The position numbers and the translations under genes were made by a program. The notes under the pieces were generated by a model. The model was not told where the DNA came from. It was given only the letters and a program-made list of their open reading frames with translations, and did no database searches. This document shows positions 1,333-35,700 of a DNA stretch of 64,000 nucleotides, in pieces. Position 1 is the first letter of the stretch, and each line of letters begins with the position of its first letter. Source of the DNA: Taenia hydatigena (Eukaryota; Platyhelminthes; Cestoda; Cyclophyllidea; Taeniidae); the NCBI GenBank assembly GCA_036345935.2, contig JADWOT020000006.1, forward strand, positions 5,521,543 to 5,585,542. Direction: 5' to 3'.

Positions 1333-1405
1333 ACTACTCTGCGGACAGTTTCAATTTGTCATCCGGCCTCTGGCCTGCAAAGCCCACTTAAAGAACATAA
1401 GTATC
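1258..1405 (+). repeat. Partial copy of the ~200-bp dispersed repeat family (unit A)
   Basis: The end of this segment (CCTCTGGCCTGCAAAGCCCA followed by CTTAAAGAACATAAGTATCA) matches the 3' end of the repeats at 7765-8190 and 54420-54615, with a recognisable upstream part (cgcgctcttg...). It lies exactly at the join between the gypsy remnant and the copied receptor 3' segment. Confidence 0.6.
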
Positions 1406-1416
1406 AGAGAAATGGT

Positions 1417-2589: not shown

Positions 2590-2673
2590 GCATCCGCATT
2601 CGAAATAGTTTGCATTAAACTTTATACCAGCGCGATTGATGTCAATTTTGAAGTAGGCCACAGAAGCGTTTAC

Positions 2674-10572: not shown

Positions 10573-10645
10573 ACTACTCTGCGGACAGTTTCAATTTGTC
10601 ATCCGGCCTCTGGCCTGCAAAGCCCACTTAAAGAACATAAGTATC
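10498..10645 (+). repeat. Partial copy of the ~200-bp dispersed repeat family (unit B)
   Basis: Same as 1258-1405, at the join between the gypsy remnant and the copied receptor segment in unit B. Confidence 0.6.
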
Positions 10646-10656
10646 AGAGAAATGGT

Positions 10657-11829: not shown

Positions 11830-11913
11830 GCATCCGCATTCGAAATAGTTTGCATTAAACTTTATAGCAGCGCGATTGATGTCAATTTTGAAGTAGGCCA
11901 CAGAAGCGTTTAC

Positions 11914-12729
11914 TTAGTGCATAGCGGCGTCCAACTGGCACTTGTCGCTGACGCTCAGCTCAGCAGCTTGGACAAAGGCATCTCCGGCTTCCTTCCACTT
12001 GTGCGCCATTTTGAAGCAGTTAGCTGCACGCTCATAGAGAGCCACGCGCTCTTCTGTTCCATCAGAGCCACTGTATTTGAGAAAGGGAGTAAAGTCAGAA
12101 ATTGTTTACTCACTCCGCCTCCGTCAATAAGTGAACGATAAGAAGCCACGCTCTTAACACTCACTCCACCAGCGCATGCAAAAAGTGATTCCTACACTTC
12201 CTTTACCTACATCTCATGTCCCACATAGGGAGTTGAACAATGCTAAGCAGTGTGATGCATATCATTATAAAGTACGCAGAGTAATCGACACTTGCTCAGA
12301 ACTGAAGTGCCTTAGTCTAAATCAGTGCCACCCAGAGAGGGACTGCAACACGTGTAGTGAAGACAAAATACTACACAAATACTGCCACAATGATGAAATA
12401 AACCACCTAACCTTTCATCTAAGCAGAGTGAACTGCAGCACGACATACGAGTTGCAAAAGCCCCCCAAAATACCTCAAAATACAGAGCAATTGCAAGCAA
12501 ATCGCCAGAGGCTGTCTCTTGATCCTATCTACAAGCATACCAGCTCCAAATAACGCACACGGTTCTGAAGCATTATAGCAAGCCATCGCAGTTTAGCAAG
12601 AAAGATTTAACAAGAACAAACACCAATGCATTTCACACACCCTGAGAACAATGAACGGAAGAACCCTCCTTTCGGGTGCTTAGCAGCACTAGCTAAGTAC
12701 TCACGAGCCTTCCTCTCATTTTCATCCAT
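11914..12729 (-). pseudogene. alpha-SNAP N-terminal fragment, copy B (exons 1-2 only)
   Basis: Same structure as 2674-3489: exon 1 12729-12641, exon 2 12070-11914, ending in the same TAA at the presumed donor. The shared stop shows the lesion predates duplication or was spread by conversion. Confidence 0.8.
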
Positions 12730-14508
12730 CTTGTAACTCCACCCCCAAGCGGCACCGCACCAGCAATTTGAAAGTGTGCCCGCGTCCATCATCAGCAGTA
12801 GTTTATGCCCCAACAGCACGATCTACGTGGTTCAACCTGTAACGATTTAGATGCATCTCCACCAGTTGGTGTTGCGAACGGGTTACTTAAGTGTAAGATA
12901 GCTGATGCAATATTATTTGTTAGAGACGTAATTAACGCAGTTCTAGAATATTAACCGCAAGTCTCGAATTATTTTATAAAACAAAAGAGGATACCTTAAT
13001 CAGGTAAACGCAAGGTGGTTTCCTTAAGTTGGATCCACTTGACCCTATTTTTAACATAGCTTTGGTGCAGATAAAAAATGCTTCACTTTGAAGATGCTCG
13101 ATCATCGTGCAGTCCTGGACACGATTGGTTCAAATTCTGATGCGCTTAGTTAAGAATAAGCACCCACCTTAAGCACTATTAGTTTGTTCGTTTACTTGAC
13201 CAACAAAATTGTTTGACAAGCTTCATTGCTTGTGCCCACTTCAGCCAATGTGACTTGATGTTTTAAGCTGCTTCATGAAGCAAACCAGTTAAATGGTCTG
13301 AAAACGTCCCAACTGTCAGCTGCTGATATGCCGAGTTTAGTGGTCTCTTCTATGCTCTCCTTGAGGGCGATCTCCTACATCAAGTACTCAATATTCACGC
13401 CTCATCTCAAAGTTCCATCACTGACAGGTTGTGCAGAATTGTTTCAACCACTCTCAAATTTATTGAAGAAGAACAACAAGCGAACAACACAAGCTACCCA
13501 TACTTCACCTACTTCACCATTATACTTCTTAACGCTTCCAAATGCATTACCGTGATGATTTGGTAGTCAATTTGATCCCCCCATGTATGTGCAAAGTCCC
13601 TAGTGTCAGTGGTTTGTGAACCCGTCTCCCGCCTTAGCATACCCCATCACAGCTTCGAAAGGGCTCAGAATGCTGCACCACACCGCCTAAAATGTCAGAC
13701 CTCACTGACATTATTTTAACCTTCGAGTGCTGCCAGTCCACAGCCTAACACCAGATATTCCACTTCACTGCATTGGCTCAGACGCAACATGCTTTCGGCA
13801 TCTCCGTTACCCAACTGAAGCACCCGTGCGAAATCCACCCACGACCAGTTCGAACCACACTTCACACCACTACCTATCATCCTAAGGTTACTACTATTAT
13901 TATACTTCATTCTTGCGTCACTCATTCTTCGTTAGCTACCGCAATGCTTCATTGATTTAAAGCTTCCATCTATGCTACTTCGTGAGCACCTCCAGCGCCA
14001 TCTGACTCAGGCACTTCTTAAAGAAATCAACGACGTGTGTAGGCGGATGTATTCCCGCTACTATGTGCATAAACCCGTTAATCTAACAACTTTTTACGGT
14101 AGCTGTTTCACCGCAGTTCTTTACACGAAAAGGACTATTAAGTACAACACCAGTTCCTGCATCCCTTTCCTTCTTTGCGTCAGTCAAAGTGGTCCATCTC
14201 ACATTCAACCACGACAATTAGCCACTGCCCATCTATCGCATTTATATGTGCGATAAGCCTCCTTACGTACTTTTCGCCCAAATTGGATAGGCAATCGGTT
14301 CACGAGCCACACATTAATCAGACTGGACCTTCGAAAGGATCGCCATCCAAGATTAACTTCCAATAATGAATACTATTGTTAATTCACCCCAAACCCAATT
14401 GTTGCCGATCGCACAAAACTGTACAGCACCTTAGGCACCACCACTGACAGGAAGGAAGGTGAAAGCAGTAAGTGGACATTGTTAGAAGACGTCGCACATT
14501 TAAAAGGA
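12730..14508. other. No gene recognised (unit B)
   Basis: Counterpart of 3490-5268, nearly identical. Short open frames only. Confidence 0.5.
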
Positions 14509-16605
14509 TTAACAAAGGCAAGTTTTATGTCGAGCAAAGCAACGCCAACAAAATTCGTATAGGCACTTGCGGCAGGTCATGTGGTTGCAGCCTCCATTTT
14601 TCTAAAACACACGCACATACCGAAGTGTTACAATCGGCAACGTGTTCCTCCTCAACTAGAATAGTATACCTTCTTGCCAGTTTGTGAAGGACTTGGAAAA
14701 CCCTCCACCTCAAATCTACTCACTTTCAATGAGAAGGAAACTTCTTCGAAAAAATAGAAAATTGCGTCTGCAATTAAACTAGCTGTAATTGATAAATCTC
14801 GTTCAACACAGGCATAGTCTGGAGTGAAAGAAAATGCTGAGAGCTCGTGGAGAGCACTCAGAGAGCAGGTAACTCAACGCTGCCAAAGTTGGCATCTAGC
14901 TTCGGAAAAGTGATTGTAGGGATTTGCAGTGTCTATGACAACCAAGCATTTCCAGCAAAAATTCTTTCGGCATGAGGAACACAGCACACGATTGCAGCCG
15001 GTGTATTTCTGCATTGAAACGAAAGACACAGACGTGAAAAGGGAGAAATATGCAAACTATTCCATTAGCTGTAGATTCTAGACAAACTGAAAGGCGTATT
15101 TATGCACAGAGAAAAACACAGGCTGCTCAAGTGCCATCGGTGATAAGCGATCTGCGATCACATCTTGTTTAAAGAAAGACGCGGAACTCACCAAAATGGG
15201 TGACTTGCAGTTGGGGCAGGGCTTGCACTCTGTATTTATAAAAGTGTTTGACGCCACCTCCTGGATCAATTTAAGGATGTTGAGTTTTCCATGCTGCATC
15301 TCAAGCATGTTTTTACCTTCCGGACCAGCATTATTGTACCGCTCGACCAAGTCGTGAGCTACAGGAAGAGATAAAATCAGAATAAAACTTTGGCATCTGA
15401 CCTAATTTTGCACCCTGCTCGGTTAAAATGAATGATTATATGGAGAGATGCGAAGTGGTACCTTCTGCGGCAGTCAATTCGGCAAGCGGGCCAGATACGC
15501 AAGCCGTGTCGGGGTGAAAGTGTTGTCGACACTTGGCACAAAAATGAAACATGCACCGTGCACACACACCCTCCGTGAAATCGTCACTCAGCATCACATG
15601 TGGGTTTCGACACTGCGCATTGGGACACTCAACCACGTTTTTCATTGAGCTCAGTGTCCGGTTCAGAAGCATCGTCTCGTACTGCTCGTAGACTTCAGGG
15701 CTGACAATCTGTCTTATCTGAAATGAAACTCCACACTAAGCAAATACCTTCGAGTGAGTCATCCTGGCAAAAAGAAAACACTTCGTTACCTCTACTGGGT
15801 GCACCTCCTTACTACATGCAGCGCATACTGGTGAGCCAGAGTTAGCCCCACTTTCTACATTCTCGGCAATAGCTTTAGCAGCACAATCCTTGCAGAAAAT
15901 GTGACCACAACCTCTCAACCGTATGCATCTCACACCATCGCAGTCATCAAAACAAATCGGACACTCGTACGTGCCTGATTCGAATTCTTTATCACGCATT
16001 TCCTCCTCGAAGTCGATCAGGGTTTCCACGAACTGACAGCGATCCTCTAGTTCAACGAAATATTCTAGAGCATTTATCACCAGGGATGTCGGGTCACCCA
16101 AACTGAACAAAGAGGAAAGAGCGACATTCTGAAGATATTCACAACACGTCGTAAGGGAGCTGCCAGTGGAAACGGACGCCATAATATTGGACAAATTAGA
16201 TGTAAGTACTTCGATGAGCGTGGATGGAAGCCAAGCAGACTCAATCCAAAAAGCAAAATTCGGATCAAATGGGTAGCCACCATTTAGTTGAAAATTGAAA
16301 AATATTGGCGGTAGGGATGTGAGAATGTAGGTCATCGCATTACTGGACGAATCAAATATGCATATGTCTGAATACTTGACATTGCGTCTAATAGGTGGGC
16401 CCGAAAGATAAATATTATGCATTTTAGAATATTCTGCTTTGTATTCACCCGATAATTCATCCTCGTTGTTTATCTTAAACCGCCCATTATATGCATTCAC
16501 GAGCTCATTCATTTCCATAAGGGCCATCTTCCTATTTCGGCTTGCGACAAATTCTGGAGAAAGACACGGGGGCTTCTTTATAAGCTCTTGAATAAGGTCA
16601 GCCAT
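14509..16605 (-). CDS. RNF14-like RBR E3 ubiquitin ligase, copy B
   Basis: Exons 16605-15790, 15717-15462, 15358-15192 and 14601-14509 join in phase to 443 aa. The domain order is the same as copy A: RWD, RING1, IBR and RING2 with the catalytic cysteine in [10 protein letters not shown] at residue 418. RING1 reads [15 protein letters not shown], which is the more canonical CxIC form; copy A has CLVC with four further changes nearby. The N-terminus also differs ([19 protein letters not shown] against [19 protein letters not shown]). From about residue 25 to 160, and through the IBR and RING2, the two proteins are almost identical. Both copies are intact, so two ligases with different E2-binding loops may be made. 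Confidence 0.92.
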
Positions 16606-17835: not shown

Positions 17836-18164
17836 TTGCACTTAAGTAATTTTTTCGAATCGTCAAATAATTTAACTAATGTATCTCTGTGTATGTAGTC
17901 GTCACGTATTTCAAGTGACTTCTTGCAATTTGCAAAGAGTGCTATTCGCACATTCTAAGAGTCTTTGTCGAGGAGCGGAACTATGTGGTAATTTATATGA
18001 CATGGCCTTCTGGCTTATGATCTGCATCTATCCCTCTTTCCACCTTGTTTCCATCATAACACCGCTAAGCAGTCTAACTATATTCCCTTTCCGGTTCATA
18101 GCACGAGATACAGGTGTCCTGTCTTCCACTTGATTTATATACCTGCAAAGAAACAGCAAAAAAC
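17836..18164. other. No gene recognised
   Basis: Sequence between the LTR element and the start of the 1.17-kb triplicated segment. It has a 60-codon minus-strand open frame (17951-17769) that runs into the LTR and resembles no family I know. Confidence 0.4.
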
Positions 18165-19331
18165 GCTTAATGAAGTTGTCTGAGCCTGCTTGTGGGTGAT
18201 GTCACTTCATTTGTCAATTGACCACGATTGTATAGGCACCACTTCTCCACGTTGTCTTAACAACCACCCTCACCGTTGGCTTTCTTCTGTGATGGCTGCA
18301 TAATGACAGTCATTCATTTACGTGGAGTTTCCATACCTCTCTCAACAATCGAGTGCATGAATCCTCTCCCAGACCATTGTAAGGTGTATACAACTGCAAC
18401 TGCAACAACCACCACCATTACGGCCTCGATGATCACTGACGTCCAGACGTGCAGCCGCCTCCACACTGGTAACATGTGAACCACTCCATCGTCCACTGCT
18501 GTGTCTCACCACCTTTTCCCACGGTACTGGCAGTCTTTCGTACGGGTTGACGTCTTCAGGCTCCACGCCTTTGTGCAAAGGAACGACCAACTCCACCATC
18601 CTCAAGCGCCATTCCACGCCAACACGTGCTCTCCCCGCCTGTATTGCATGCAGCAGCTACACGGTAGACCTGGTCTGACTTATGTGCGTCTCCTAGGGCA
18701 CCCCTCCCCCCGCCCCCCCAATTGAAGACTCTTTAAACACCCTTCTGCACTTTAAGTTGACATCACTCAATAAGGCCGTTGCTGATGCCAAGCTACACTA
18801 CCTAAATACGCCTCGATTAAGCTGACAACGAAGGAAAGAGACAGGAATTGGATTGTGGAGGACAGGATGATCTATTCTATTGACGCAGGAAAACGTCCGA
18901 CTCCCTTGTTTTACCGGACATCTCCACCTTCAGTTTCGTTAAATCCTTTTTGACACGCAAAGCACTCAGTCGCGTCTCGGGGTCGCCATCCCAACATTCG
19001 GGTAGGAGGCTGTCGAAGAAGTCGGAAACGCGCCTCCATTCTGTTGCCTCGGAGGGCTGGAGTGGATCTGGGGCATTGATTTCTCCTGTAATTTGCAAAA
19101 CAACGTTGAACTCAACGATAAGATGGATAAGTCAACGAATGGGATGGTTGGCTGCGCATTATTGAGTGAGCAAGTTACTGCTATGCTCACCTTTCTCCTG
19201 CAAATCGTTGTTACTAATGCCATCTCTCCGTGAGAAACAGATTGGTCAGAATTAACGGTAGGCAAAAAACACACGACACCTACAACTCGGTCCTTTGTAG
19301 ATGCGTTTATTGTGCCCAGATCGTGCAGTGC
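18165..19331 (-). repeat. Genuine receptor 3' segment (copy C of the triplicated 1.17 kb)
   Basis: This copy alone is contiguous with the other receptor exons on its right (21783-29172), so it is the source locus. Identity with units A and B stops near 18165 and again at about 19331, inside the receptor's last intron. Confidence 0.88.
18391..18640 (+). repeat. ~210-bp repeat R2, plus orientation
   Basis: Matches the reverse complement of 24265-24475 at roughly 80% by eye (for example cacggtactggcagtcttt against cacggtactgggagccttt). Also present inside copies A and B (about 1649-1898 and 10889-11138). It lies 3' of the receptor stop codon. Confidence 0.65.
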
Positions 19332-22300
19332 GCGTCCGCATTTGACTCTGCATTAGCTTAATAAACCTCTCTTGCCCTTATTCAACTGTTTCGCAATTTA
19401 ACTTGGTAACTTTCTGACATCTAAAGATGGTTTTTCGTGGCTGCTTTACCACGGAGCAGAACATAGCCATTGCTTTGCGACGCACACTTCGTCGTGTGTC
19501 AGTCTGAACCAAGTGGTGTTCTTCGGTTCGGTGGTTGTCAGGCGGGAAGCTTGATAAAACCCACTGAAGACTTAATGCGGCATCTTCTGCTGTTCAATGC
19601 TTTGCCAGAAAGTACGTCCCATTCTCACCCCAAGTAAATTCCAACATCTTGTTGCCTTGCATGTTTCGATGTTGTATAGCCAAATTGATCTGTGGCTGAA
19701 CTTTTTGTGTGTAAATGATATAATGCGATGGGATTTAAATGGAAAATGTGGTACACACTTTTTTTAAACGTCCATATCTTTCTTACTTTAATCCTATTCC
19801 GAGTTTGACTGGAATGCCTCCCTAAGTAGAATAATATCTCGGTATTGGAGGACTCTTATATTCAAACGTGGAATTAAACAGTGAACAAGGTACACAGAGA
19901 ATGTTTCGTGCGTTATCGACGGAGTACTAAATCTTAGAAAATTTACCATCGCTGGGAACTGATCTCTGACCCTTAATGCGTGAATCTAAATGATAAGCAG
20001 CATTTGCATCACTGGAGTTACAATCCCCAGTCCAGACGAGGTACTCGTGGGGCACAATCAAAAGATGAATTAAAATTGGTAAAAGAAAACAACACAAAAG
20101 CATTTTGGATCACATTTTACTTGAACAGCGAAGCGCTTAGACCGTATTGGCTGAACCCGTCATGCCAATCACTTTGATCTCAACCCTCCTCCCGGGGAAC
20201 ACGACAAAGATATCCATTGCCTTTGTGCGACCCGCATGTCTACAGGCCTCGCCCCTCCCGCCGTCAACTCTATGATCATCATTACCACCACTAAATAAGA
20301 CATATAAATCAATGGAAAGAGGGGAAGTCTTGGACCTCCCAGGAAGCCTCCCGCCTCAAGCAGCCAGCTTGATTACTCGGGCATCCGATGGCCAAAGCGT
20401 GAAATCTCCATCGCACGTTCTTCTCGCAAAGCTGAATGTTTACGTAGCGTCCACCATTAAGCCTACCTTGCCTAACGCCTTCAAGCAAACAGAGTAATGT
20501 GGCCGTCGCGGCTTCCCAATTTTGTCTTTTCATCCATAAATGACAAACTGCTATAGGTGTACACAAGTTTTCCAGTTAGTATAGCTCGATTGCGCTGTCG
20601 ATTTTTCACTGCCTTCAAGGCAGGCAAGACTATTTGCTCGAGTTTCTATTTAAACCGCGCCCCCTGTGCTCTCAGAGGTCGGCAGGAGGGGTGTCTTTTT
20701 TGCTGATCCAGAGGCACGGCACACAGCACACATCGCCGCGGTCGAATGACTTATATCAGCGCACACGGGTGGCGATAACGTCGATGCTGTTAACACAATG
20801 CCGCGTTGCATCGTCGGTCCAGATTGCGGATAATGGCAAGGTGTGGAGGGGGTAGGGGGGCACGTACGCACGCACACGGCCGATCAGGGTGCGCCGCACA
20901 GCATATGTGCGCGCGCACGCACTTGATTGGTTGCTGGGCTGATTGACGGAGGGGGCGGGGATGAAACACAAGAAAATTGCTTCGATGTTTGCCTCCGTGT
21001 GTGTATGCGATTTTTTTGAAAGTGGACTTTGAAAATGAAACGATGAACTTTCGAAAGCGACTGATTAACACTTTCCAGGTCTGATGTAACCTGAATGTGG
21101 CGTGTTCTTCACCGTTTGCGTCAAGCTAATATTGGCATGATTGTGCCTCCGATCTCCTACAATTAACATGAATGGCACGTCTAATTCAATTTACTTAGAA
21201 TCGGTACTTAGCTAATTCGGTCTAGAACAGCCTAGTGTTCCCATTTCTCATCACTACGCCAACCAGCTAATCTGTGTCGTAAATGGACACTGGGTTAGGC
21301 GGTGGTCTTTCAGACAGTTTTATTATGCTGAACTATGTCGTCCACCGTCGACAAAATGAAAGGGAAAATGCGATACATACCTTCTTCGACTTTGAATAAT
21401 TTTTGTACATAACTCTAAGGTGGGATCAACTGTTCTCCTTATAGAGGTAAGTAAATAATAAAAGGCAGTTCGTTCAGAATAGACGAATAGGAGGAAATCC
21501 AGCTAAATCGACCCCACCGTTCCTCACTCAATCACTAGTCTGGACGCATTTTTATCCTGTGGCAAACATTTTGACATTTGAGAACACCTTATTTTTGGCT
21601 GAAAAAAGTGTCCCGTTTTTACAGCCCTCAGCGACGTGAACCACAGTTTCCCGCTTAATAATTAATCAGCGCCTTTATTGCAACAACGGGGAATGGGAGC
21701 CCTTCTCCAATATTCAGTAATCCGGCGTAGATCAGTGAGACAAGGGAATAATTAAGAAATTAACCACTATATTTTAACCTACCGGATAAAATGGGCAGGC
21801 GAGGTCGCTGACCTTTGACGCAAACCATCGCCTTCGCCGTGGGTATGTCGGCATCTCGGGGCACCTGGAATGGGAAGTGGGAGGAGGAGGAAGGTAAAAT
21901 AATGTCAAAAAGTGGGATAGGCTTGCTGGTTTAGTGAGTTACCCAGAAACGGCCGGCATTTTGTCCCAAAGCCCAGGTAGCAATCTCCCAAATTACGATG
22001 CCAAGGGCGTAGATATCTGCGCGCTTGTGTGATTCAAAGCAGAAGGGAAAAAGGGTCTCTTCCATAATCTAAAGAAATCATTGCATGGATGAGAGTGTTC
22101 AATTCCCTGGATTGTTTGGTAAATATTTTGGTCATTTTGAAGTCTCTTTAATTTACCTATCATTTTGGAAGAGTATGATTTCAAAAAGGAATATCGTTGA
22201 GTGCATCCCACGTAGCATTGCAACGATGAATCACTTTTCCTGTCGCCTCTATAAAGTTTCATAATGGCTTTCATTTTTATGTTTACTTGCTTAATTTTTC

Positions 22301-25300
22301 GTCTAATAACCAATTCTGCTATTCAGCCTTTCTACTCAGGCGGTTTTCTCAAGAGTAAAATAATGTTAAGTTGAGTTAATTGGATCCAATAAAGGCAGAG
22401 TGGACGCTGGTGGAAATTAAACAACAAACTAGATTATTCTCTTCTTCTATGGTCGCCGACGCTTTGAAAATTCATGTGGCACAGGTGACAGCATATTAAT
22501 AAACACCCTTTACATTATATTAGCGCACATCGTTTGCCTCACAATTCTTCATCCTGGTTACGCTCCATGTCTTTCACACGGGATGCTCACTTTCAAGACA
22601 ACAGTAGTATGCTAGAATAGGAAGTCTTAAGCCCCGGATGGGGCGTGGCACAACTGTTAAAGTGGTTTTCAAACATCCCGTCTTTAATCTCCCCATTTCT
22701 GCACTCTGAACAAATACATATACAAAGAGAACGCAACTTAGCTATCAATGAGTGCATTAAAAAATTTGCTAAATGGAACAAGTGACAAAAAATAAGAAAG
22801 TGTTCTAGCTACCAAAAATAATGTCAAGTACAAGCGTAAAAAATACCGAAACGCATATAAGCTTACGGAAATTAAGCCGAAAAGAGTAAAGATATGCGGA
22901 AGCAAAGTGTTTGGCAATGTAACACAACGCTACTTATTACAGTTTAAGCGTCCGCTGCCAATTTCACTTAGCTGAATCTAGTATCACAATTATGCCACAT
23001 GCAACTTTAATACGTTTACAAGGCAGGATAATAGTGGTCTGAGAACGAACTCCGTTTGAAAAAGTGAATGGCACTTGAATTAGGAAACCCCCGGTGGAAA
23101 TAATGGTGTCAGACTAGGTCCAGTAAAACGCCTGGTTGACTTTCGTATGAGATCTAATTGGTGGACGTTGAACATACGCAAGTGAGAATCAGTTAAGTTT
23201 CTCACAGTTCGGACTCCACTACGATGTCATTGAGTCCCGTTCATGCCGGTAGTCGCCTGGACCTTGCAGTTCAGCTAATTCTGGATCCGCACTCTTTAGA
23301 GCATATGCCTAGAACGCACAAACTATGTGATGGGACTTCATCCAACTTCTTTAACTTGATTTTCTACTCATCCACGTGTAGTTTCAGTTTTCAATGGATT
23401 ACCAAAATGACTAATGCATGAATTTCTCTCGGTACTAAAGCCACTAGAAGGCTGCAAATCGTCGATCTTTCGACTCACTTTTATTATTGGGAGTCTAAAA
23501 CAACAAATCGAGGGAATATAAGCGCAAGTGAGTCTGTACACAAAATAGGGATGAACCGCCTTCAAAGCAATAAAAAACCATTAATAACTAACGTGACATC
23601 AAATCTAAAAATTTAGCTTTAGAACTAAATAACTAGGGACCACTATTTCGATCTCAAGGAGCTGCATGTTTGCTGTGGGCACACACCTCCGGTGCCATGT
23701 AAGTCGGGAGCCCAACTTGCAGGCCGCAGACAGGCCACCAATCGGGGAAAAGTGGCACGGAGGCAATCGGGGAGCGACGATCACCGTCAGTGAGGGCGTT
23801 TGAGCAAGGGAGGGTGGGTTGAGTTGGGAGGTGAGATGCCGACCATTCACGGAGGTGAGCATTAAAGGTCTGCATCAGCTGTTCCACGGAAAGGGGTAGG
23901 GGAGAGGGTGGAGCGCAGACGGCGTATTCTAGTCCACCTATACAGATGCCACCGTCGACCTTTAGGTAGATGTTCTCCAGACAGATGTTGCGGTGAGCCA
24001 AGGCCGGTCGTCCTCTTGTACCTGTCATGTCTACAAGGCGTTAGTTGGTGTTAGTTTGTCTTATTGAGGAGTTCTGTGTATATGGCTGCTGTTGGAGGGA
24101 CGTTCAGATCAAATTGGAACTTCCAATTTGACGCGGCGGTTCTACGTGTAACTGAATCGCATTGCCTTGAGACAGAACTCGAGTCGTAGGTTAGGCTATT
24201 CTAGACATCAGCCATAGAGATGGCTGACATCAGCGAAAGTACCTGTTTGCACGGAATAACATTTGACGATGTTAGAGTTAATCATTCCTCTGCACGAACG
24301 CGTGAAACCTGAAGATGTTAGTCCGTACAAAAGGCTCCCAGTACCGTGTGAAACAGTGGTGAGACAGCAGTGGACATTTGAGTGGTCCACATGTCATCAG
24401 TGTGAAGTCGACCGCGCGTCTAGACGTCAGTGGTAATCGCGGCCGTGATGGGGATGGTGGTTGCAGTTGCAATCCCCTATCTCGGCAGTCATTTAGCGTT
24501 ACGAACTTGAGGCGATCTGTCGACGCTGATCAACACATAATTAACCTGTACCGTGACAAAACGGTGCAAATAACTGGTCTTCTAGTGGTAACAGTGAGCA
24601 CAATCACTGAGGCGCATGTGGAATTGGGAAGGGCACACACGGGGATGTCAAGGTGAATGAAGTGGAGTAGGTGGGACCTGGATTCATCAACCAAACTGAC
24701 AAATCAACCAAGCTACTTTTAATGCCGAAATATTGAGTAGATGAGTAGAACTTCAAAATAAATATACGAGTAAGGGGCAAAGAAGAAGGCAGGTTACTCT
24801 TCCTGCAACTTAGCTACTTTCCAGATTGATCATAATTTCTCTCGCAAAGCAAAAGAATGCAACCGAATCGCGCATGAAACGCACAAAGACACTCAATCCT
24901 TCGCTACTTGGCCTTCACAACAATGACTTTGAATCTTATGACATAACGGTTTTCTTGTCGACTCCTCTGTGCATTTACCATAAATCCTCTTTCAGACTGG
25001 TGTGCTCATAACGTCTTCGGTAATATCTGGATAGCATAATATACAACTCGCCCTTTACGGCGTGGGCTTCCAGCCGCCTGGCGGCTAATAAGACCTATGC
25101 CATCTTCTAAAGTTACTCGAGTTACTGATGACAGCAGTCTGTGTTCAAGGAGCTTCATTTTTATAGTTTGGGACAAATCGTTATGAATGAATGAAAGCTA
25201 AGCCCACAATCTAGCCTAATAAAAAGGTATAAAAGATTGTTATTTGAATGGAAGGAAGGAACGGAGAAACAAAACACGATGAAGCAAGCTTACTTTTTCT

Positions 25301-28300
25301 TGGCCGTTCCAAAAAAACTGAATTCATTTATCCGCCTATTCTAAAGGTCTAATTGAGCGGGAGAAACCAGTGTCAACTGCCATCCACCAGTGCGCAATCC
25401 CCCTTATAGCCACCGGCCATTTTGGCATTAGTCAGTGGGGACCAAGAAGGGACTAGAATGGGGAGGTGGGGGAGGAGAAAAATGCCATAGACATGTTGCA
25501 CTGGACGGGTCTGTACGTGTACCTACACAAACATTTGCTGTCTTCCGCCACGGCCACAAAATTTACCGCAAGCGTCTGCCTCGTCGCCTTGACGACGGTG
25601 TGTGCTGATTGATGACCACTGAATCATGCATGCACACACAACGTACCCTTAGAAGCACGTAGGGGCTTGCTTCGATTTCCCATGTGAGTGTTTGCCTGCT
25701 CTTTCTCCCCTATGACTGTTTTTTATTTAAATAAAGATGAAAACATGTTCCAAACTGGAGCATGGCGTCGACACAAGGCAGCACTGCCCTCCCTCTCCGG
25801 CCTGTGAGCAGATTGTGTTCGAAGTCGTGTCTTATGATGGACATGCATCTAAGCGATCCACAATCTGTCAGAGAGTGGAACTCTTACCACTCCCTTCCCC
25901 CCTTTCCCTATCACCACCACCGCCACCACGAGTCGGCCGCCATGAGGAGGTTCAGCACGGTGTTGAAAAATCTCACTGTCAGTTGGATGATGGTAAAATA
26001 TAGTGACAAATGCGTGCACGTAGGGTATCGGACATCTGATTATAAGTGTAATGCCAAAAATTTGGTTGACAGATGAAGATGGTGGCTTCAATGTAAAAGC
26101 ACAACATACAGCGATTCCTGCTGCTTTTTAAATGCGACTCATTCGTATGCGACGATAGGAATTTTAAACGTATTGGAGGATTGGATATTCGCACACTCTA
26201 AACCGCAAAGCAGGAGCAACTTAAGACAGAACAATGCTTAACGAAATGACCGAGGTCCCCTAAGCATAGCAACGTAGGAAAATATATAGTTTCTACTACT
26301 TAAACTTCCGAATATATCATGTGGGTCAGAGAAGAACACACACAAAGATCGTGAATAGAAATAGTGCAAAATATTCTCAAGTTTGAGGAATCACTTACCG
26401 GTGTGAAGAAAGGTTATTCCGTTCACAATATCGATGAGAGCGCGCAGGACAAAGGTGAGGGCTGAGGTGGTTTGCGGGGACTCCATTGGAGCGCTATGCC
26501 GCATAAAATTGAAGAGTGAGCCCCAAGGGTAAAACTCACTAACAATGAAGGCGCAGACGGTGTTGGTAGAAACGAGGTCAGGCGTAGAAGGCGCTATTGT
26601 ACAGTATCGGAGGTCCGTAAGCAGACAAACGTCAGCCGCTTTAATGCCACTCAGAGAGGAGTGCCGAAGAACGCACTTTCCGTGAAGGTAGGTGAGACGT
26701 TTCCACAACATCAGCGACCTTGATGCACTGGCGAGAGGCAGGAGACGTACACTCACTATCTCATCCTCGTACTTGGCTGAGAGAGAAAGAGGGGAAGGAA
26801 TTCACATATGGTATTAATCACCAAACTAGTGAATTTATACAAGAGCATGCAGTTAGCAAAAAACCTCTAAGGTTTTACCGAACTACAGCAAAAAAAGTAA
26901 ATGCTGTTAAAAAACCAACGTATATGAATAATATTCAAAAGATGATGAGGTTAAAGGTAGGTATCAATGAGATCTATGGATCAAGGAAGCTTAAAAAACA
27001 AAAAGGATGCGGGTAACACGTTGCGTGCTTAACTATAAGTTTTGGTAACAAGCCACTTAAAGCCCCTGTCGGGTGGCCTAACCTCTGCGCGTCGCCAGTA
27101 GCCCTGAGCCTCACCGCACGTTAACACTGCATGTCCCGCTCGAGCATTGTGTCTTCTTTTGGCTTCAGCTAAGTCTAGTGGAGCTACAGCAACCGTTCTT
27201 TATTTGAATTGTCTCCACTGATAAACATTTGATAGTTAAGCTACTTTTTACGCTTCATTAAAGAAAAAAATATCCCCAATATTAACATAGTATACATTTA
27301 AGTTAAAAAACCAAATGCCTCTTAAGTGCTAATCCGCTGATAATTGACCGGCAGGTGAGGTGATTAACAATTTCTTTTATAATAGAAGAATAACAAAGAC
27401 AAAATTCACCTTTGGTTGCTCGAGAAACGCAGAAGAATAAAATTACCACCCAGTTTACAAACTCTTTGCATAAATGTAGGTGGATACCATCATTAATGAC
27501 AGAGGATAAACTTAAAGTGGCAGACTAAAAGAGTGTTTTTGTGATAATTCTAGAGCGTTTACTTGCTTAAAAAGCATAGTTAGTACTTAAACAAGATGTC
27601 ATAGCGCTAAGATCGCAGCAAAGGTGAACAAGACCTAAATATAGTTTTAAGGAAACAATTGCCACCTCCACAGATAGATAAAAAAGTACTAATTTTCCAC
27701 ATAAACTTTTGGAACCTATGGCTTAATACGATGCGTAGGAGCTTAGAGATCTGCGGTTGGAATAAATGCCTTTCATAAAATCCTAGGCAACGAAAAAACT
27801 GCTGTTAAAATAGTCAATATTATACTGGCAGTGTTAAATTGTTAACCGCAAAGGACATTAATCGTGTGCGATGAATTTAGATTAAAAAGATCAAAAAGGT
27901 AAAGAGTTTAAACATTTATTCACAACCGGCTGTTAGAAAATTTCTTAGTTGGCCATCAAGAAGAGCCAGACTTATCACCGCTGCAGCATTCGCAGGCCAA
28001 AAACTACATACAGAAGATTCTTAGGGTAAAAGGATAAAATCCAAAAAACAGAAAAGCTTATTGAAGGTAAAAATTTGACCGAAATTAACCACAACCGACA
28101 AAACATAAAGATGCAAATAAAAAGACAAATGACCTTAACACCTTTTTCTACAAAATAAAAATAAAAAACTTCAACGTCTCGCATTTTCAAATCAAACTAT
28201 TCTAATGCAAACATCAGACAAACCTGATAGGACTTCGGAATACCGATTATGAGTAAACGAGGCCAATAATTCCAACTTATGAACCAGCATTTGCCCATTA

Positions 28301-29172
28301 AAAGCTTTGTTTTGGATAAATTGAGAGGAAAAGAATGATTGGCTTTCTTGCAGATTTGTTGAATTTGTCGATGCGGCAGAAGAGCTGTTCAAAATAAACT
28401 TTGGCTGGGGTGAGGGAAGACAGTACACCCAGGAGCATTGTTCACTTTCCTTTTGTTTTTGATGGAAATAATTGGAAAACAGTAAAAAAGACACCAGCCG
28501 AACGATAATGAGTAGAAACACCATCCCGACTAGAACAAGCATGGGGATATAGGAAGATAGTCTTTTCATTGACATGGGAACTGATAAAGTGGTTTTCTTT
28601 TCAAAGGATTGGGAAAAGTGTTTGTTCGATTCCAGCACCGAATACGATTCCATTAGGAGCTGAGGTCCAAGAGGAATATTAGAAGCAAAAGGTACTGCGT
28701 TTAGAGAAATGCTATCTAAGTTAGTTTTTGAAAATTCAAAGTTTTGATTATGCACATTTTCACTACCGTTGACACTATATAATGTCTTAGTGTACGGTCT
28801 TCGAAATCTTAAATAATAGTTACATGTGCTGTTTTCTTTGCAGCATGAGAATAAAGAGCTTGTACGGCGATTGGAAGAATGTCCAGAACACATAAAAATT
28901 AGGAATGGGGAAAAATTGAGGCACCCGTACCTAAAGGAAGCATCTTGGTTGAAATAATCATGATTTGCTGAAGTCGCTTCAACTTTCGAGGCGGACCAGT
29001 AAAAATTTCGTGAGCGAATAGGTAAGTCATGAGATTTATCAAGAGAAGCATAGCAATAACCACGAGACGGTGCAATACAAAACCTGATTTCATTTGACAG
29101 ATTGAATATAGAGTTCATGGTTTGGTTTTGGAAACAATGCGTATTGTCGTTGCAGATGCATACTAAATTCTC
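18877..29172 (-). CDS. TGF-beta type I receptor-like transmembrane pseudokinase
   Basis: Six exons (29172-28224, 26776-26399, 24030-23687, 22068-21943, 21864-21783, 19085-18877) join in phase to 696 codons. The first has a ten-cysteine ectodomain (CxC start, GYCY, YGCL, CC-x5-CN), a membrane span at about residues 209-232 and an S/T-rich stretch where the GS box would be. The kinase fold follows human TGFBR1 closely in spacing: LRHSSLSGIKAAD, SEFYPWGSLF, GTRGRPALAHRN, YMAPE, FESHKRADIYALGIVIWEIA, ECW and RLSALRVKKDL. Catalytic sites are replaced: glycine loop NRYSEV, VAIK lysine to R (VSVR), helix-C Glu apparently Tyr, HRD to HRN with the next Lys to Cys, and DLG to GLE. Activation segment about 45 residues longer than in TGFBR1. 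All frames are open, so it is probably a maintained pseudokinase that modulates TGF-beta/activin signalling. The signal peptide exon was not found. Confidence 0.88.
19332..21782. other. Receptor intron 5; no other gene seen
   Basis: The last intron of the receptor model spans 19086-21782. The part right of the triplicated segment has only short unsupported frames and a GC-richer patch near 20640-20960. No coding or RNA feature is recognised. Confidence 0.5.
22069..23686. other. Receptor intron 3
   Basis: Between the APE exon and the FESHKRADIY exon. Low-complexity and AT-rich; nothing recognised. Confidence 0.5.
24265..24475 (-). repeat. ~210-bp repeat R2, inverted copy inside a receptor intron
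   Basis: Reverse complement resembles 18391-18640. It sits in the intron between the exons at 24030 and 26399, so the receptor transcription unit holds the two copies in opposite orientation about 6 kb apart. Confidence 0.65.
24476..26398. other. Receptor intron 2, remaining part
   Basis: No coding sequence recognised. Open frames at 25737-26091 on both strands overlap one another and lack any family signature. Confidence 0.45.
26777..28223. other. Receptor intron 1
   Basis: AT-rich 1.45-kb intron between the ectodomain/membrane exon and the first kinase exon; nothing else seen. Confidence 0.5.
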
Positions 29173-29772
29173 CTTCGAAGTCATTAAGAAAAAAACGCAG
29201 CTTTTGTACAATTGCTTCAAAAGAGTCAACAACCCTACGAGGAAAAGCCAACTTTATTCCACATATGATATCGCGCAAAATATCCTTGAAATGCATTTGA
29301 TTAGACACAACAATGCATGTCCTTGTAGTGACGGATACGATTTTATTATGAAAATCGTAGTAAATTTATTCGCATTTAAATAGACAAACTATGAATAGAT
29401 TATTGGAATCAATGATTTTGGGTTTAGCGTATGCAATAGTGAAAATTGAAATTGGTGCTCAATGCGACATCTTAAATGGGTTAGTCGATCACGTATTCGC
29501 TAAAGTACAAAAATACACCAAAATAGTTCCGGAATTTGACACAGATACAGTGGGTGCAGATAAAGCGTTGGCCTAAGCAATTACTGGTAGAACAAGTCAA
29601 ATCTTTATTTGAAATAATCTGCGAACATTTTCATTAGCAACGCTTTTGCATCCACTAGCCAGGTTCTAAAAACGTTTTGTAATTTTTATTTGATTAGTGA
29701 CTGAAACATTTTGTTTGGGTCGGTTGAAATATGCATTCGTCGTTTGAATAGCGCTTTTAATGTGGTGGTGCA
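29173..29772. promoter_or_regulatory. Shared upstream region of the receptor and RanBP2 genes
   Basis: The receptor's first identified exon (minus) and the RanBP2 start codon (plus, 29773) diverge from this 600-bp AT-rich stretch, which must hold the RanBP2 promoter and probably the receptor's leader exon. A hydrophobic minus-strand frame runs directly upstream of 29172 (LLTLLKQLYKSCVFFLM), which might be a signal sequence read without an intron, but no ATG heads it within the open frame. Confidence 0.4.
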
Positions 29773-32700
29773 ATGTTTTCTACGAGAGCTCAAGTGGATA
29801 AATACGTTCAGAGCACTCTGTCTAAAGTTTTGAATGCACGAGAAGTAGTTGAATAAGTAACCTCAATCTCGTATAGAAAAACTCCTATGGGTATCATTTC
29901 GCTAAGCTTTACCTTGATGTTCGTGACTACCATAGTGCTCGAAGGTGGGTTGCTTTACAATTTTTAAGCTTCAGGCATCTTAATGACTTTCTCTCCATAC
30001 GAAAAGATTACTCACCAGGGTTTCAGCTCCTTGGGCAAATCTTGGAGGCCCAATTTGATGCTTTAGGAGCCGTTGAAGCCTATGAGAAGGCTTACGAGCT
30101 GGACCCCCTAAATACGCAACTTATTTTAAGAAGTATGACATGTTTCTGGCTTTCCTTGATTTCCTCTAGTTCATGATCTGGTTCTAAGATTTCATCTTCC
30201 AATGAAGAAATATGAAGTAATTTTATACCATATCTAGTATTGCTTTAGAAATATCGCGATATTGGGCGAGTTTCATCGCTCTCCTTACCCTTTTTTAAGG
30301 CTTTGTATAAAAGCGTCGAAGTTGTTGAAGATGTAAGTTTTGTAGGCCTTATGGTTCCTGTAGCCGTCGACATCTCTGGGGCAGCGTATTTCACTCTTGA
30401 GAAATTTGTCATCTCGTGGAGAATGCGATGAGGCCTTCGATTTGTGCGTCAAAACTATTAATGAGCTTGTTTGTATTGACAGAGCTGCCTGGTACAATGC
30501 CGTGCTGGATTTTATTTCGGTATTTCATCGTATTTGTTACCTACCTCCATTAAGCATGTACCGGAATCATATAATAAGTACTCCTGGTGCAGTCATCTTG
30601 ATACACTCCGAGGTTTCGCCTTGGTTGAAGTTCTTCGCCTTACTGCACACACGGCTTGTCTGTCTGATTTCTTATCTAATTTGGCCCGAGTCGATGAATA
30701 CATTGTTGAATTACTGTGTTCATCACGTTCCCATGCTAACGACTTTGTAATCGAAGTTCAGTTACGTCTCTTTTTCTACCTTTCCGTATATTTTCGGAGG
30801 CTCACTCAAAAGGTAGTTTTATTCTGCTCCACATTTACTATTCATTTCCGTCTCATTAGAAGAAGGTGGATTCGGATGTACACATCCTCATTGAGTCTTG
30901 CCTTTACCGCGCAGCTGCTCTCGAACTGACTGCTCCTTCTGGTGATCCGATCCTCTCAAAATCAGTATGGGAGCACTTGTATAGCGACGGGTTGTCACTA
31001 AGATTGCAGTCAGTGTTATTGGCTGATAAGCCTAGCCAAAGCCACTCCCCTTGGAGGGTGGTCTTGCTTGAGGCCTTGAGCCAAGACGGTCTATCAAAGA
31101 ACGAACAACTCAAATTTGAATTCCTTTGTGGGCTAGCGGAACTTGATAAAAGTGGAGTCGCTTGCTTGCACAACCCAGAGGAGCTTTACTCAAAACTGCT
31201 TGAATACAGACCGGGTGATCTAAGCACTATTCTCTGGTACGTCCTGCGTCCCGTCAAGGCGGAAATCACGTCAGACACTGATTTGGCTCTTCCGGTAGCT
31301 CGTCTCAAAATTATCGTTGATTGTGAGTTTTAACTTTTACCAATTTTGGCTATTTTCCCGTCCTAAATAATCCGTTTTTTACGCTTAAGCGGTTAAGCGG
31401 GTTTTTCCAATGACGCCACTATCTGTAGAGGACTGTGAAGCTTGCCAACTTGACGCAATAGTGTTTTTAGTGGCTCTATCTGTTTCTTATCTGATTCGGT
31501 ATGCATCCTCGGAGACCTCAGGACGCAAAACTCGAGAGACATCATTGTCGTGGCCACCCCAACCACTCTGTCTCCTAAAAACTCGTCTGTTACCAAGTGG
31601 TATACAGCGTCGGTGTTGGAATAATTTGTGTGCATGTGCAAAAAACAAGTCATTGTAAGTCGTCTCATGAGTTTGGTTAAGATTTTTGTTTGTTTCACCC
31701 AGAGGATATGTTCTTTTACAGTGCTACTGAATCCCCTCTGACACACTTTATCGACCAGCTGCGTTTCACAATGCGAACACGGGCTGTGTCAGCTCGTTTG
31801 ATCCTTCGTGTGGCTCTGGCTACCACTCGCCTACCCTTGGATGCCTCTGCTATTGACTGCACCTTGGCAAGAGCGGCTAGGTCATGGGAGGCTGGCCTCA
31901 AGGCCTTGATGGAGAATTCTGAATTCGCTCAGCCTGGTTCCCCTGCCCTAAGGTACTTTTTTTCTTTGAGTCTTATGATCCGGCCTTTAAACACAGTAAT
32001 TAAGAATCGGTTCTTTGCTTAAAGCGTTCATGAAACGTACTCTGACGAGGACATCCTTTTCCCGGCTAAACTTAACTCCGATTGGTGGCACGGTACTCAT
32101 GTGGAGAATCTAATCACTGTGGCTTCGAAAGATCAGGCGTGGTTCTTCCTTGGTTGGCGTTGGCTTGCCTCATATTGGCTGGACCATCCACTGCCCAATT
32201 TGGAGACATTGATGAGGCATCTGCAATATCTGAGAGATCGATCTCTTCCTAGTGACATAGAGTGCACACTTTTGGCAGCAAAATTAGTCGAAAATGCGAC
32301 GAGCCTGAACAAAACTTCGCTTCTCATGAAACCTCTGGGGAATCTCGCAATGAGTCTTCTGAACACTGCGCTAATGTCTGTCCAAAGGATCCCACTCACT
32401 GATGAATCCATGGTACGCCTATGAAAGACGGGAGAGCAATTTAAGATTTAACTTCTGCTTCTTGTGTGTATCTTTGTGTCTGTAGACAATGCCAACAAGG
32501 GATCTTTCTGATGCTATCACATCATTGCAAAAGGCTTTGGGATCGCTGAACGCTTCTGGTGAGCAGCTCTTCTCGTCCGCTCGCTGTGCTTCCGGCCTCG
32601 ATTCTCTTTATTGTAGATTTTCTTCTTACGCTTTAATTCTGATCGGGTTTTCAGATTGCTTTTGTGTAGATTAGTTTTTAGGGCAATTATATGATTGGAG

Positions 32701-35700
32701 GTGGTTCTAGCCTTTATGCTACAGATATAAATTCAAATGCAAGGTCTTTCCAAGCTTGGTATCATTGATGTCCACATCAAAGCCTATTGAATTAAGTGAT
32801 ATGTGGGTTAGAGTTCGAAGGATTTTTCATTTATAATTTTTCTTCTTTATACACTGCTTTGTCGTCGTATGTTGCTTTTGTGCTCATATTTCGCTGAATA
32901 AACGATATTTCTTCTGCCTTCGATCTTTTCCCGCGAACTACTGTATTGTTTTCATTCCCATTTTGATCCGTCTCGTTTTTTTTCTTGTTTTGCTCTCGCT
33001 CTCCTTGGCGCTGCCCATATCACCACAACAAGCTCAACCCACTGAAGTTCAGTCAACTGATCCAGCTCAAACGAAAATCATGCCATCTGGATACGGATCC
33101 TACGCTAACGGAGGTCGCACCTCCCTATTTGGTAATTATCGATCACCCGGGGTTACCAATTCTCCTGCTTCAATGAACACTGCTGCGGCCTCCAACTCTC
33201 TGGCTTCCGACTTGCAGGTAATTCTACGTTTCTGGGTTTGCATCGAATTTGTTTGGCGTTGTATTTCCAGACGTTGTAATATCCTCTTCTGAGCTATTCC
33301 GTGTCGGGAGGTTAGCCATTCTGGTTGGTTAATGCTTTGTAGGGATGTATTTTCGGCTCTCAGATTGCTTAAAGAAATGAATGCGCAAGGGTTGTTAAAA
33401 TCAGGAACTTTTAAATTCGCCTTTTTCGTAGACAAAACTAATGACACAAGTCGTGGAACAATGGATGCCTTCATTCATGGAGTTTTCGCGCATAATGTCG
33501 GAGACATCTGCGGAGTTGGCGAAGAGTCGCCTGCAGAACGAGGAGCTGTCACGCCTGTTGAAGGAAACGCGGAATCAATTAGACACAGTTATTGCGGAAC
33601 AGCAAAAGCAACAGCAGCGTACTCCAGTTCCAGTCCGACAGCCCACTCCGCCGTCTCATCCCGCGCCCTCTTTGGAGGATTGGCGCGCATTGCAAGAGTC
33701 TCTGCGTGAAGTGACTTCCATTTTGAGGGACTTTCGCCAGTGGCTGCCCACTGCTGTGCCTTCTTTTGCTCCACCCCCTCCCTTCCCTCATCCACCCCAT
33801 ATACCACCAGCGCAACCATCTGCCATGCTTCGGCCCGGTGACATTTTCACGTTAGAGAGCCAACAAAAGGCTCAGCTGGCGCTTTCTCAACTTGCTGCCT
33901 TTCAACAGCAGCAACAACAACAGCAAATGCCAAGGACGACGGGAGGATCGTGCTTTTTGCTTCCACCCCCTTCTCATCCGCCTCCCGCAATGCCGCCTCA
34001 AGGTTGGTTTTTCTATTATCCCTTCTGTAACACGCTGGGTTTCGAACGTTGGTTATCCATATCAGTGCGAGATATTAATGTGCCTAGAGGAGTGAAGAAG
34101 AGAGATCATACCGCGGTGGCGTTAAACGTCCATTAAAGGTGGTTCTTTGCCGCATAACTATTGTTTGTTCGTCATTCTTTTGCCGCTCGTGATCCGCTGA
34201 GACCGTCTCGAGTCTTTTCGCGAATTGTGACTGAATGTGAGATCGGACTGATAATGGTACGTTAAATTCGCATTGTAGAGGTAATCCTGAAGGCCTTATT
34301 GAGATTCTTAACATTGGCTTCTCCAAAAGGCCGACTCCATTGGGGATTTCATTTGAGCCTGCGCCAACGACTGGACGATACTCTGTGGCAAGTGTAGTGT
34401 TTCATGCGTTCCCACGCCATACAGTCGACTTTGATTCATTGGAACTTGATCTCGCTTTATTATCGATCATTGCGCAGAGCTCGAATCTAGGGTTTGCTGC
34501 AAGTTTATGTCTGTTCAGTCCTTCACAATTCCGTCGGCCCACAATAGATACTTCTATCCAAGGCGAATGGCATTTTGTGTTGTAATGCAGCGTAGCCTCG
34601 CTTAATCGTAATTTCGTACTTGTAATGTTATATTGGTTGTTTCTGAAAGGGGTAGAGTGCGCCTTTTTTCTGCTTGCATTCGACTAGGGATTGGAGAATT
34701 TTATGCTCAGTTTGATCACATCTGTCTTAATAAATCCTAGGTTAATCGGCTTTTCTAAAACCTTCATTTTTAAGAGGGCTGAAGTTGTGACAACCTTAGC
34801 CGATTTTTGGTGTAAAAGTTATGTTCTGATCACTACTTAGTGATGGTGGTGGTGACACTGCTGAGTACAGCACCAGGCTGATTGGATCCTTTATTCTTTT
34901 GCAATTTCAGCGGCCTCTGTGGACTTCCGCGTTCCGCCTGCGGCAACTGGCCTTTTTCCTGCTGGTACGAACACGTCTGCTACCTTGACATCGACTCCAG
35001 CCCCTTCTGCTGACCTACCAAAAGGCGCCTCATCAGTTACCATGGCAACCGCACCGATACAACCGGTAAAACCACCGCTGACTTCGCCTGTTGCTTCTGC
35101 TGGTGCTTCAGCTACGTGGCCATCGAAGAACACACCTCCTGACCCAAAACAAGTACTAGTCGCATTTCCTTCTTTGCTGAAATTTACCAACAATTTTGCC
35201 AGCATTTTGTTGCATCCTTTCAAGGATATCCCACCAGTGGGAAGCGCGTCATCACCTGTACCAAAACCGCTGCCGTTCGCGTTTAAGCCTGCCGCTACCA
35301 CCACAACTGATACAATCAGAACGGAGACTTCGTCACTGTTTAGTTTTAGCAAGCTCGGAAGTCCAGGCGCTGTTGGCCCATCAGCTCTCGTTGGCGCTCT
35401 CCCCTTCGGTCACAAGCCTGCCATTTCACAGTCCTCCGGCAGCCCTGATGTCTTGAGGAAAGTGGAGGGGGTGACAGAGGCAGAGGCGGAAGATGACGAG
35501 GATAAGCCGGAAGCATTTGAGCCTAAGGTTGAGTTCACGCCGTGTGTAGCGAAGTTACCGGAATTGGTAGAACAAATCACTGGCGAAGAGGGTGAGCGAG
35601 TGCTCTTTTGTCACCGTGCTCGTCTCTTCCGTTGGGATAAGTCGGATTCGGCTCCTAGTGGGGAATGGAAAGCTCGAGGCGTTGGTGAACTTAAGGTTTT

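What the first reader, a model, noticed from the sequence alone, without database searches (positions are those of the whole stretch)
18877..29172. A type I TGF-beta receptor whose kinase has lost every catalytic residue I can place
The fold and exon layout track TGFBR1 residue for residue, including FESHKRADIYALG and RLSALRVKKDL. Yet the glycine loop, VAIK lysine (R), helix-C Glu (apparently Y), HRD aspartate (N) and its following Lys (C), and the DLG aspartate (G) are all changed, while the reading frame and splice sites of six exons stay intact. That combination points to selection for a non-catalytic role, for example a decoy or a scaffold in heterotetramers, comparable in logic to BAMBI, which lacks the kinase altogether. 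I know of no described flatworm receptor of this kind.
Basis: partly seen in the sequence, partly recalled or inferred. Interest (0 to 1): 0.88.

Follow-up and report, generated by a model that had tools for sequence, protein, structure and literature searches.

The report
Tapeworm TGF-beta receptor with dead kinase
A tapeworm gene encodes a TGF-beta-type receptor whose kinase domain has lost the residues needed for catalysis but is otherwise kept in related tapeworms, so it likely binds growth factors and partner receptors without passing the signal on; a receptor of the same description was reported from the fox tapeworm in 2023.

Summary
The catalytic-loop Asn and APE motif remain. Full-length models exist in Taenia solium (81%) and Echinococcus granulosus (71%), partial or partly mispredicted ones in T. 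crassiceps and Mesocestoides. Added here: (1) kinase signatures favour a type I, not the published type II, origin, though the tree alone does not decide; (2) three of four trematode kin keep the catalytic Lys and Asps but lack the helix-C Glu, suggesting a graded series; (3) five C-lobe residues tested in ALK2 for type II receptor binding are kept while catalysis, the GS box and the Smad-docking L45 loop are gone; (4) a conserved Ser/Thr block replaces the GS box. This fits a non-signalling decoy or dead subunit. Function, expression here and dN/dS are untested.

The parts
28224..29184 (-). Exon 1: ectodomain, membrane segment, juxtamembrane, P-loop region; 5' end (MTSKEN...) uncertain, signal-peptide exon not found
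   Evidence: T. solium and E. granulosus models start at the same place; no signal-peptide ORF found upstream in 29150-31500 by a simple scan
28819..29160 (-). Ectodomain, 10 cysteines ending in CCKENSTCN box
   Evidence: same number and order of cysteines as the three canonical cestode type I rows compared (two receptor types)
28477..28548 (-). Hydrophobic membrane-spanning segment IPMLVLVGMVFLLIIVRLVSFLLF
   Evidence: read by eye from the translation; no predictor run
28342..28374 (-). ASTNSTNLQES block at the position of the GS box
   Evidence: identical in 4 of 4 cestode proteins compared; a run of 11 or more in 77 of 20000 shuffles
26399..26776 (-). Exon 2: N-lobe, VSVR (Lys lost), helix C (Glu lost), enlarged L45 region
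26745..26747 (-). Arg codon at the place of the ATP-binding lysine
23687..24030 (-). Exon 3: catalytic loop HRNICLEN, GGLE for DLG, 88-residue activation segment to YMAPE
23987..23989 (-). Asn codon at the place of the HRD aspartate
23933..23935 (-). Gly codon at the place of the DLG aspartate
21943..22068 (-). Exon 4: FESHKRADIYALG, helix F
21783..21864 (-). Exon 5: helix G region VCVKGQRPRLP
18877..19085 (-). Exon 6: C-lobe end, NANDOR box, stop
   Evidence: near-identical intact copies at 11375-11583 and 2135-2343
18934..18972 (-). RLSALRVKKDLTK: five basic residues equivalent to ALK2 R485, R490, K492, K493, K497, in the type II receptor interface
   Evidence: interface residues from PMC8368100

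Best explanation
The gene encodes a receptor that most likely derives from a TGF-beta type I receptor; its kinase domain lacks the catalytic lysine, the helix-C glutamate and both catalytic aspartates, and it likely works as a non-signalling decoy that would occupy ligand and type II receptor. Shown: intact frame, 10-cysteine ectodomain, loss of the catalytic residues, loss of the GS box and of a type-I-sized L45 loop, retention of the C-lobe basic residues, presence in other tapeworms. Inferred: it reaches the surface, binds a BMP/activin/TGF-beta ligand (the worm's or the host's), pairs through the C-lobe with the worm's type II receptor (one is known in E. multilocularis; it was not located in this genome), cannot be activated at a GS box or phosphorylate R-Smads, and so lowers signalling through the canonical type I receptors, of which this genome has three GS-motif loci.
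For: Residue losses in 5 of 5 cestode proteins at Lys, HRD Asp, Lys+2, DLG Asp and Gly, with the same replacement residue in all five (R, N, C, G, E), against none lost at these columns in the 16 canonical flatworm rows readable there (17 rows, P0034 gapped; P0022 is from an unnamed source). Ectodomain: same 10-cysteine order as the three canonical cestode rows compared. The ALK2 residues R485, R490, K492, K493 and K497, tested in group mutants that impaired BMPR2 binding and signalling (PMC8368100; singly K493A disrupted it, K492A did not), are kept in 4 of 4 cestode proteins with a readable C-terminus; the three human type II kinases differ at R490, K492 and K493. L45 region 39-41 residues in 5 of 5 cestode pseudokinases, 24 in 20 of 20 non-human canonical type I rows. 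The Pfam GS motif matches three other places in the own genome above cut-off and not this protein. Pseudokinase more conserved than ectodomain (T. solium 87% against 77%, E. granulosus 77% against 65%, M. corti 50% against 44%). Neutral simulation: no stop in 3 of 2000 runs at 81% and 0 of 2000 at 71% identity.
Against: No binding, localisation or signalling data exist. The E. multilocularis gene is weakly expressed in larvae (PMC10073696). The pseudokinase evolves faster than active paralogues over the same species pairs (window genome to E. granulosus 82% of 283 against 93% of 214; T. solium to E. granulosus 84% of 281 against 96% of 295; E. granulosus to M. corti 61% of 241 against 87% of 294), which fits relaxed constraint as well as new function. 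The kept basic residues could be structural, and R485 is also present in the human type II rows. No signal peptide was found. Relatives' models are predictions that avoid stops, and the simulation has no indels. Kept type II binding would also fit a required subunit rather than an inhibitor.
Confidence: 0.5

Rival explanations
1. A required non-catalytic subunit: it pairs with an active type I receptor and the type II receptor around a heterodimeric ligand and adds ligand or partner choice, so its net effect is positive.
For: In zebrafish BMP2/7 signalling the kinase of Bmpr1a is dispensable although the receptor is required, and only Acvr1l kinase is used (Tajer et al. 2021 as cited in PMC12632381, passages read). 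The kept C-lobe residues fit this as well.
Against: The GS box, where type II kinases activate type I receptors, is gone. No heterodimeric ligand was looked for here.
Confidence: 0.25
2. A scaffold that signals outside Smads, using the conserved Ser/Thr block ASTNSTNLQES and the enlarged L45 and activation-segment loops as docking sites for other proteins.
For: The block is identical in 4 of 4 cestode proteins although the whole protein is 44% identical to M. corti. PPxP and WWP(V/I) motifs in the activation-segment insert are shared with trematode kin.
Against: No partner known; the juxtamembrane before it is poorly conserved (27% of 26 to M. corti); two other stretches of the protein have runs of 12, so the block is not unique.
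Confidence: 0.13
3. A gene on its way to becoming a pseudogene, kept open by chance.
For: Faster evolution than active paralogues; weak larval expression of EmTRL; last exon in three copies in a tandem duplication.
Against: Open frame and splice sites here, full-length models in two other species, neutral simulation, same replacement residues in five cestode proteins. Models are predictions and avoid stops, which weakens this for relatives but not for the window itself.
Confidence: 0.05
4. An unusual but active kinase that uses other residues.
For: Catalytic-loop Asn, His-Arg and APE kept; some kinases work without one of the canonical residues (recalled).
Against: Lys, helix-C Glu, HRD Asp and DLG Asp are lost together in 5 of 5 cestode proteins. 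A motif scan of the minus-strand frames of 18877-29300 found no VAIK, HRD or DFG-type exon, only one G-loop-like match at 25908 (the tblastn list of that call was cut after 6000 characters).
Confidence: 0.03
5. It derives from a type II receptor, as published for EmTRL.
For: Kaethner et al. group EmTRL with Smp_124450 and a planarian receptor and call it probably type II derived. On my tree the clade with type II as one side cannot be rejected (log-likelihood 0.45 lower, p 0.443), and joining it to the other flatworm type I rows is worse (5.60 lower, p 0.089). The tree program warns of long branches meeting.
Against: Window protein: type I signature columns 11 of 22 matched against 2 of 22 for type II, type II signature 1 of 11; trematode kin 8-9 of 21-22 against 1-3, and 0-1 of 11. 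Solved-structure searches rank every type I row above every type II row for the window protein (36 rows) and, among the 60 rows shown of 303, for the trematode kin (2.9e-55 against 3.5e-27). Cestode pseudokinases alone with type II are rejected (p 0.0002). PMC3820750 lists Smp_124450 as ActRI/BMPRIa. Human type II rows only; no flatworm type II was in the test.
Confidence: 0.1

Closest known systems
EmTRL, E. [quoted passage not shown] Kaethner et al. 2023, PMC10073696)
   Same: Cys box plus 7 further ectodomain cysteines, membrane segment, no recognisable active kinase, one of six kinase residues left; the E. granulosus protein (71% identical to the window's) fits this description
BAMBI (vertebrate pseudoreceptor)
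   Same: TGF-beta-type ectodomain and membrane anchor without kinase activity; proposed inhibitory logic (recalled, and named in PMC10073696)
   Different: BAMBI has no kinase domain at all (recalled); here a full kinase-like domain with residues of the type II receptor interface is kept
[quoted passage not shown] EmTR1, EmTR3, EmTR4)
   Same: Ectodomain cysteine order, GTxGxPAxAHR and FESxKRADIYAxG signatures, NANDOR box
   Different: Catalytic residues, GS box and type-I-sized L45 loop lost
Trematode receptors P0005-P0008 (inferred, not compared, kin of Smp_124450)
   Same: Same clade (100/100), shared PPxP and WWP(V/I) activation-segment insert and enlarged L45 region, no Pfam GS match in the three scanned
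   Different: Three of four keep the Lys, HRD Asp and D of DIG/DVG and have T for the helix-C Glu; Heterobilharzia has also lost the Lys and HRD Asp

Membership tests
EmTRL-type receptor | Cys box plus 7 further cysteines in the ectodomain | tested here: met
   10 cysteines in total in window and E. granulosus proteins; description
EmTRL-type receptor | Only one of six invariant kinase residues left | tested here: met
   Of P-loop Gly, Lys, helix-C Glu, HRD Asp, catalytic-loop Asn and DLG Asp only the Asn remains; the six are my choice, the passages read do not list theirs
EmTRL-type receptor | Sequence orthology to EmuJ_000906600 | not tested
   no record of that name was returned; E. granulosus relative 71% identical
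TGF-beta type I receptor | Type I kinase sequence signatures and NANDOR box | tested here: met
   11 of 22 type I columns against 2 of 22 type II; R485, R490, K492, K493, K497 equivalents kept
TGF-beta type I receptor | GS box next to the kinase | tested here: not met
   no PF08515 match at E up to 1; three other places in the genome match
TGF-beta type I receptor | Catalytically competent kinase | tested here: not met
   residue table, (sequence only, no assay)
TGF-beta type I receptor | L45 loop for R-Smad choice | tested here: not met
   41 residues against 24, without the TQLW that follows it in canonical flatworm rows
TGF-beta type II receptor | Type II kinase signatures | tested here: not met
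   1 of 11 columns; type II matches far weaker
TGF-beta type II receptor | Place in a kinase tree | tested here: inconclusive
   rooted tree puts it with type I but one clade with type II not rejected, p 0.443
BAMBI | No kinase domain | tested here: not met
   kinase-like domain of about 380 residues
Pseudogene | Broken frame or splice sites | tested here: not met

The most novel reading that the evidence does not exclude
Parasitic flatworms hold a separate lineage of TGF-beta type I receptors that is losing kinase activity step by step: helix-C glutamate and GS box already gone in flukes, catalytic lysine and aspartate lost again on its own in Heterobilharzia, nearly everything lost and then frozen in tapeworms, while the surface that grips type II receptors is kept. 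The tapeworm form would be a purpose-made dominant-negative receptor, tuning how the worm hears its own and its host's growth factors.
Probability: 0.35. Interest if true: 0.7.

Novelty: new member of a known kind. Interest (0 to 1): 0.45.

Why it matters
TGF-beta/BMP receptors of Echinococcus answer host cytokines and are needed for protoscolex formation (PMC10073696, abstract and passages). A conserved kinase-dead type I receptor with an intact type II interface would be a built-in brake in that pathway, and would show that a receptor kinase can be kept for its docking surface alone. The fluke-to-tapeworm series makes the order of loss testable.

Tried and rejected
Alternative exons that restore VAIK, HRD or DFG: none seen in a motif scan of the gene span. 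Assembly or exon-choice artefact: rejected, since T. solium and E. granulosus proteins carry the same changes. A second copy elsewhere: exons 1-5 match at high identity only here and exon 6 three times; two weak matches elsewhere (45% and 32% identity) look like other receptor kinases (counts are lower bounds). Widening the homologue search with an alignment gave 4 proteins, all known, and lost the trematode ones (E up to 1e-10), so absence from other tapeworms cannot be concluded. The canonical search listed the best 120 of 3281 matches. Signal-peptide exon: not found by a simple scan. The regular expression for the L45 loop failed and was replaced by the alignment. Helix-C Glu was first read two residues off and corrected. 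M. corti: its model's 3' end looks mispredicted, so it was left out of C-terminal counts and trimmed by hand for the tree; T. crassiceps: its model lacks the ectodomain and is fused to the RBR neighbour, left out of whole-length counts and of the 4-way comparison. Tree rows: the window, 28 of 129 held proteins chosen by hand, and 6 human kinases. Leaving out the trematode or the cestode rows did not make the type I/II placement firmer. dN/dS: no DNA of relatives in reach. Structure: tool off.
Full report
What is there. The minus strand from 29184 to 18877 carries six exons with GT-AG introns and one open frame of 699 codons. The protein has a 10-cysteine ectodomain ending in a CC-x5-CN box, one hydrophobic segment (by eye), a juxtamembrane stretch, and a kinase-like domain. 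Pfam sees a weak kinase (PF07714 32.8 bits, over its cut-off; PF00069 27.2 bits, under it; no GS motif). Solved chains rank ACVR1 first (6.5e-33) and all type I receptors above all type II (best 1e-11; 36 rows).

What is lost and kept. In an alignment of 35 kinase domains the window has T, N, S for the P-loop glycines, R for the VAVK lysine, L for the helix-C glutamate, N for the HRD aspartate, C for the lysine two further on, G and E for the D and G of DLG. Kept are the H and R of HRD, the catalytic-loop Asn and APE. The five cestode proteins (window, T. solium, T. crassiceps, E. granulosus, M. corti) agree on R, N, C, G, E and Asn; at helix C four have L and one F.

Relatives. One protein search gave 8 proteins: T. 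solium 81% over 699 residues, E. granulosus 71%, T. crassiceps (model without ectodomain, fused to the neighbouring RBR gene), M. corti 44%, and four trematode proteins at 23-28%. In its genome exons 1-5 match at high identity only here, with two weak matches elsewhere, and three other places hold canonical GS motifs, the same number as the active type I receptors reported for E. multilocularis.

Known already. Kaethner et al. 2023 (PMC10073696; outline, section 12 part 1 and passages seen) found a fifth receptor-like gene, EmTRL, with a Cys box plus 7 cysteines and one of six invariant kinase residues, held it to be probably inactive, noted low larval expression, mentioned BAMBI as a possible parallel, and thought it derived from a type II receptor. 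The E. granulosus protein fits that description: 10 cysteines and, of my six residues, only the Asn left. EmTRL's sequence itself was not compared. A 2025 paper on E. granulosus receptors (PMC12772319, passages) has no hit for TRL, receptor-like or pseudo. Further searches showed no other report of it among the papers listed; the lists were capped, and the library is open-licence only.

Type I or type II. The nine rows (five cestode, four trematode) form one clade at 100/100. Rooted on human type II kinases it lies among type I, but holding it together with type II costs only 0.45 log units (p 0.443); holding it with the other flatworm type I rows costs 5.60 (p 0.089); cestode pseudokinases alone with type II are rejected (p 0.0002). 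The program warns that long branches meet. So the tree does not decide. Sequence signatures are clearer: for the window 11 of 22 type I columns against 2 of 22, and 1 of 11 type II columns; trematode kin 8-9 of 21-22 against 1-3; M. corti, with fewer readable columns, 5 of 17 against 3. The trematode profile gives 2.9e-55 for TGFBR1 and 3.5e-27 for TGFBR2. PMC3820750 lists Smp_124450 as ActRI/BMPRIa (passages) and PMC12688102 calls it an outlying BMP receptor (passage). I take type I as more likely. That P0005-P0008 are kin of Smp_124450 is inferred, not compared. Only human type II rows were used.

A graded series. Three of four trematode proteins keep Lys, HRD Asp and the D of DIG or DVG but have T for the helix-C glutamate; Heterobilharzia also has R for Lys and N for the HRD Asp (one predicted protein, so provisional). 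Cestode and trematode proteins share an enlarged L45 region (39-43 residues, against 24 in 20 of 20 non-human canonical type I rows) and a PPxP...WWP(V/I) insert in the activation segment.

Selection. Neutral simulation from the window's codons reached T. solium's divergence without a stop in 3 of 2000 runs and E. granulosus's in 0 of 2000; it has no indels, and relatives' models are predictions. The pseudokinase is better conserved than the ectodomain but faster than active paralogues in the same species pairs (82% against 93%, 84% against 96%, 61% against 87%). The block ASTNSTNLQES at the GS position is identical in 4 of 4 cestode proteins; it is one of three runs of 11 or more, the others being FPFCFESHKRAD and GTRGRPALAHRN; a run of 11 or more arises in 77 of 20000 shuffles. 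dN/dS could not be computed.

Mechanism. In ALK2 the residues R485, R490, K492, K493 and K497 lie in the surface that binds BMPR2; the double KK and triple RRK mutants lose or greatly impair binding and signalling, K493A alone does so and K492A alone does not (PMC8368100, passages). All five are kept in the 4 cestode pseudokinases readable there, whereas the human type II kinases differ at R490, K492 and K493. With an intact ectodomain but no catalysis, GS box or type-I-sized L45 loop, the simplest reading is a decoy that takes up ligand and type II receptor (inferred; the type II receptor of this worm was not located, unanswered). The main rival is a required dead subunit, as for zebrafish Bmpr1a, whose kinase is dispensable (PMC12632381, passages).

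Verdict. A real, conserved pseudokinase receptor; the kind was described in 2023, so the window gene is a new member. The likely type I origin, the graded series and the kept type II interface are the additions.

Noticed in passing
1-7368 and 9241-16605; 1418-2600, 10658-11840, 18160-19342: Tandem duplication (98.6%) holding an RBR-type E3 ligase gene (about 5272-7314 and 14512-16551, minus), with the receptor's last exon in three near-identical intact copies; could give alternative last exons or be an assembly effect.
   Followed up: partly
8716-9288, minus: Open frame resembling a retroelement integrase lying at the junction of the tandem copies (by eye).
   Followed up: no
29877-37207, plus: Divergent neighbour with RanBP2-like TPR and Ran-binding stretches (by eye); the first open frame seen begins 693 bases from the receptor's first known exon.
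   Followed up: no
54432-54813: Stretch of about 380 bases that matches its own reverse complement at 78%.
   Followed up: no
56285-57802, plus: Open frames resembling importin-7/8 (by eye).
   Followed up: no
P0008 (Heterobilharzia americana): Trematode member with Lys to Arg, HRD to HRN and DIG to DIE, a seemingly independent loss of kinase residues.
   Followed up: partly
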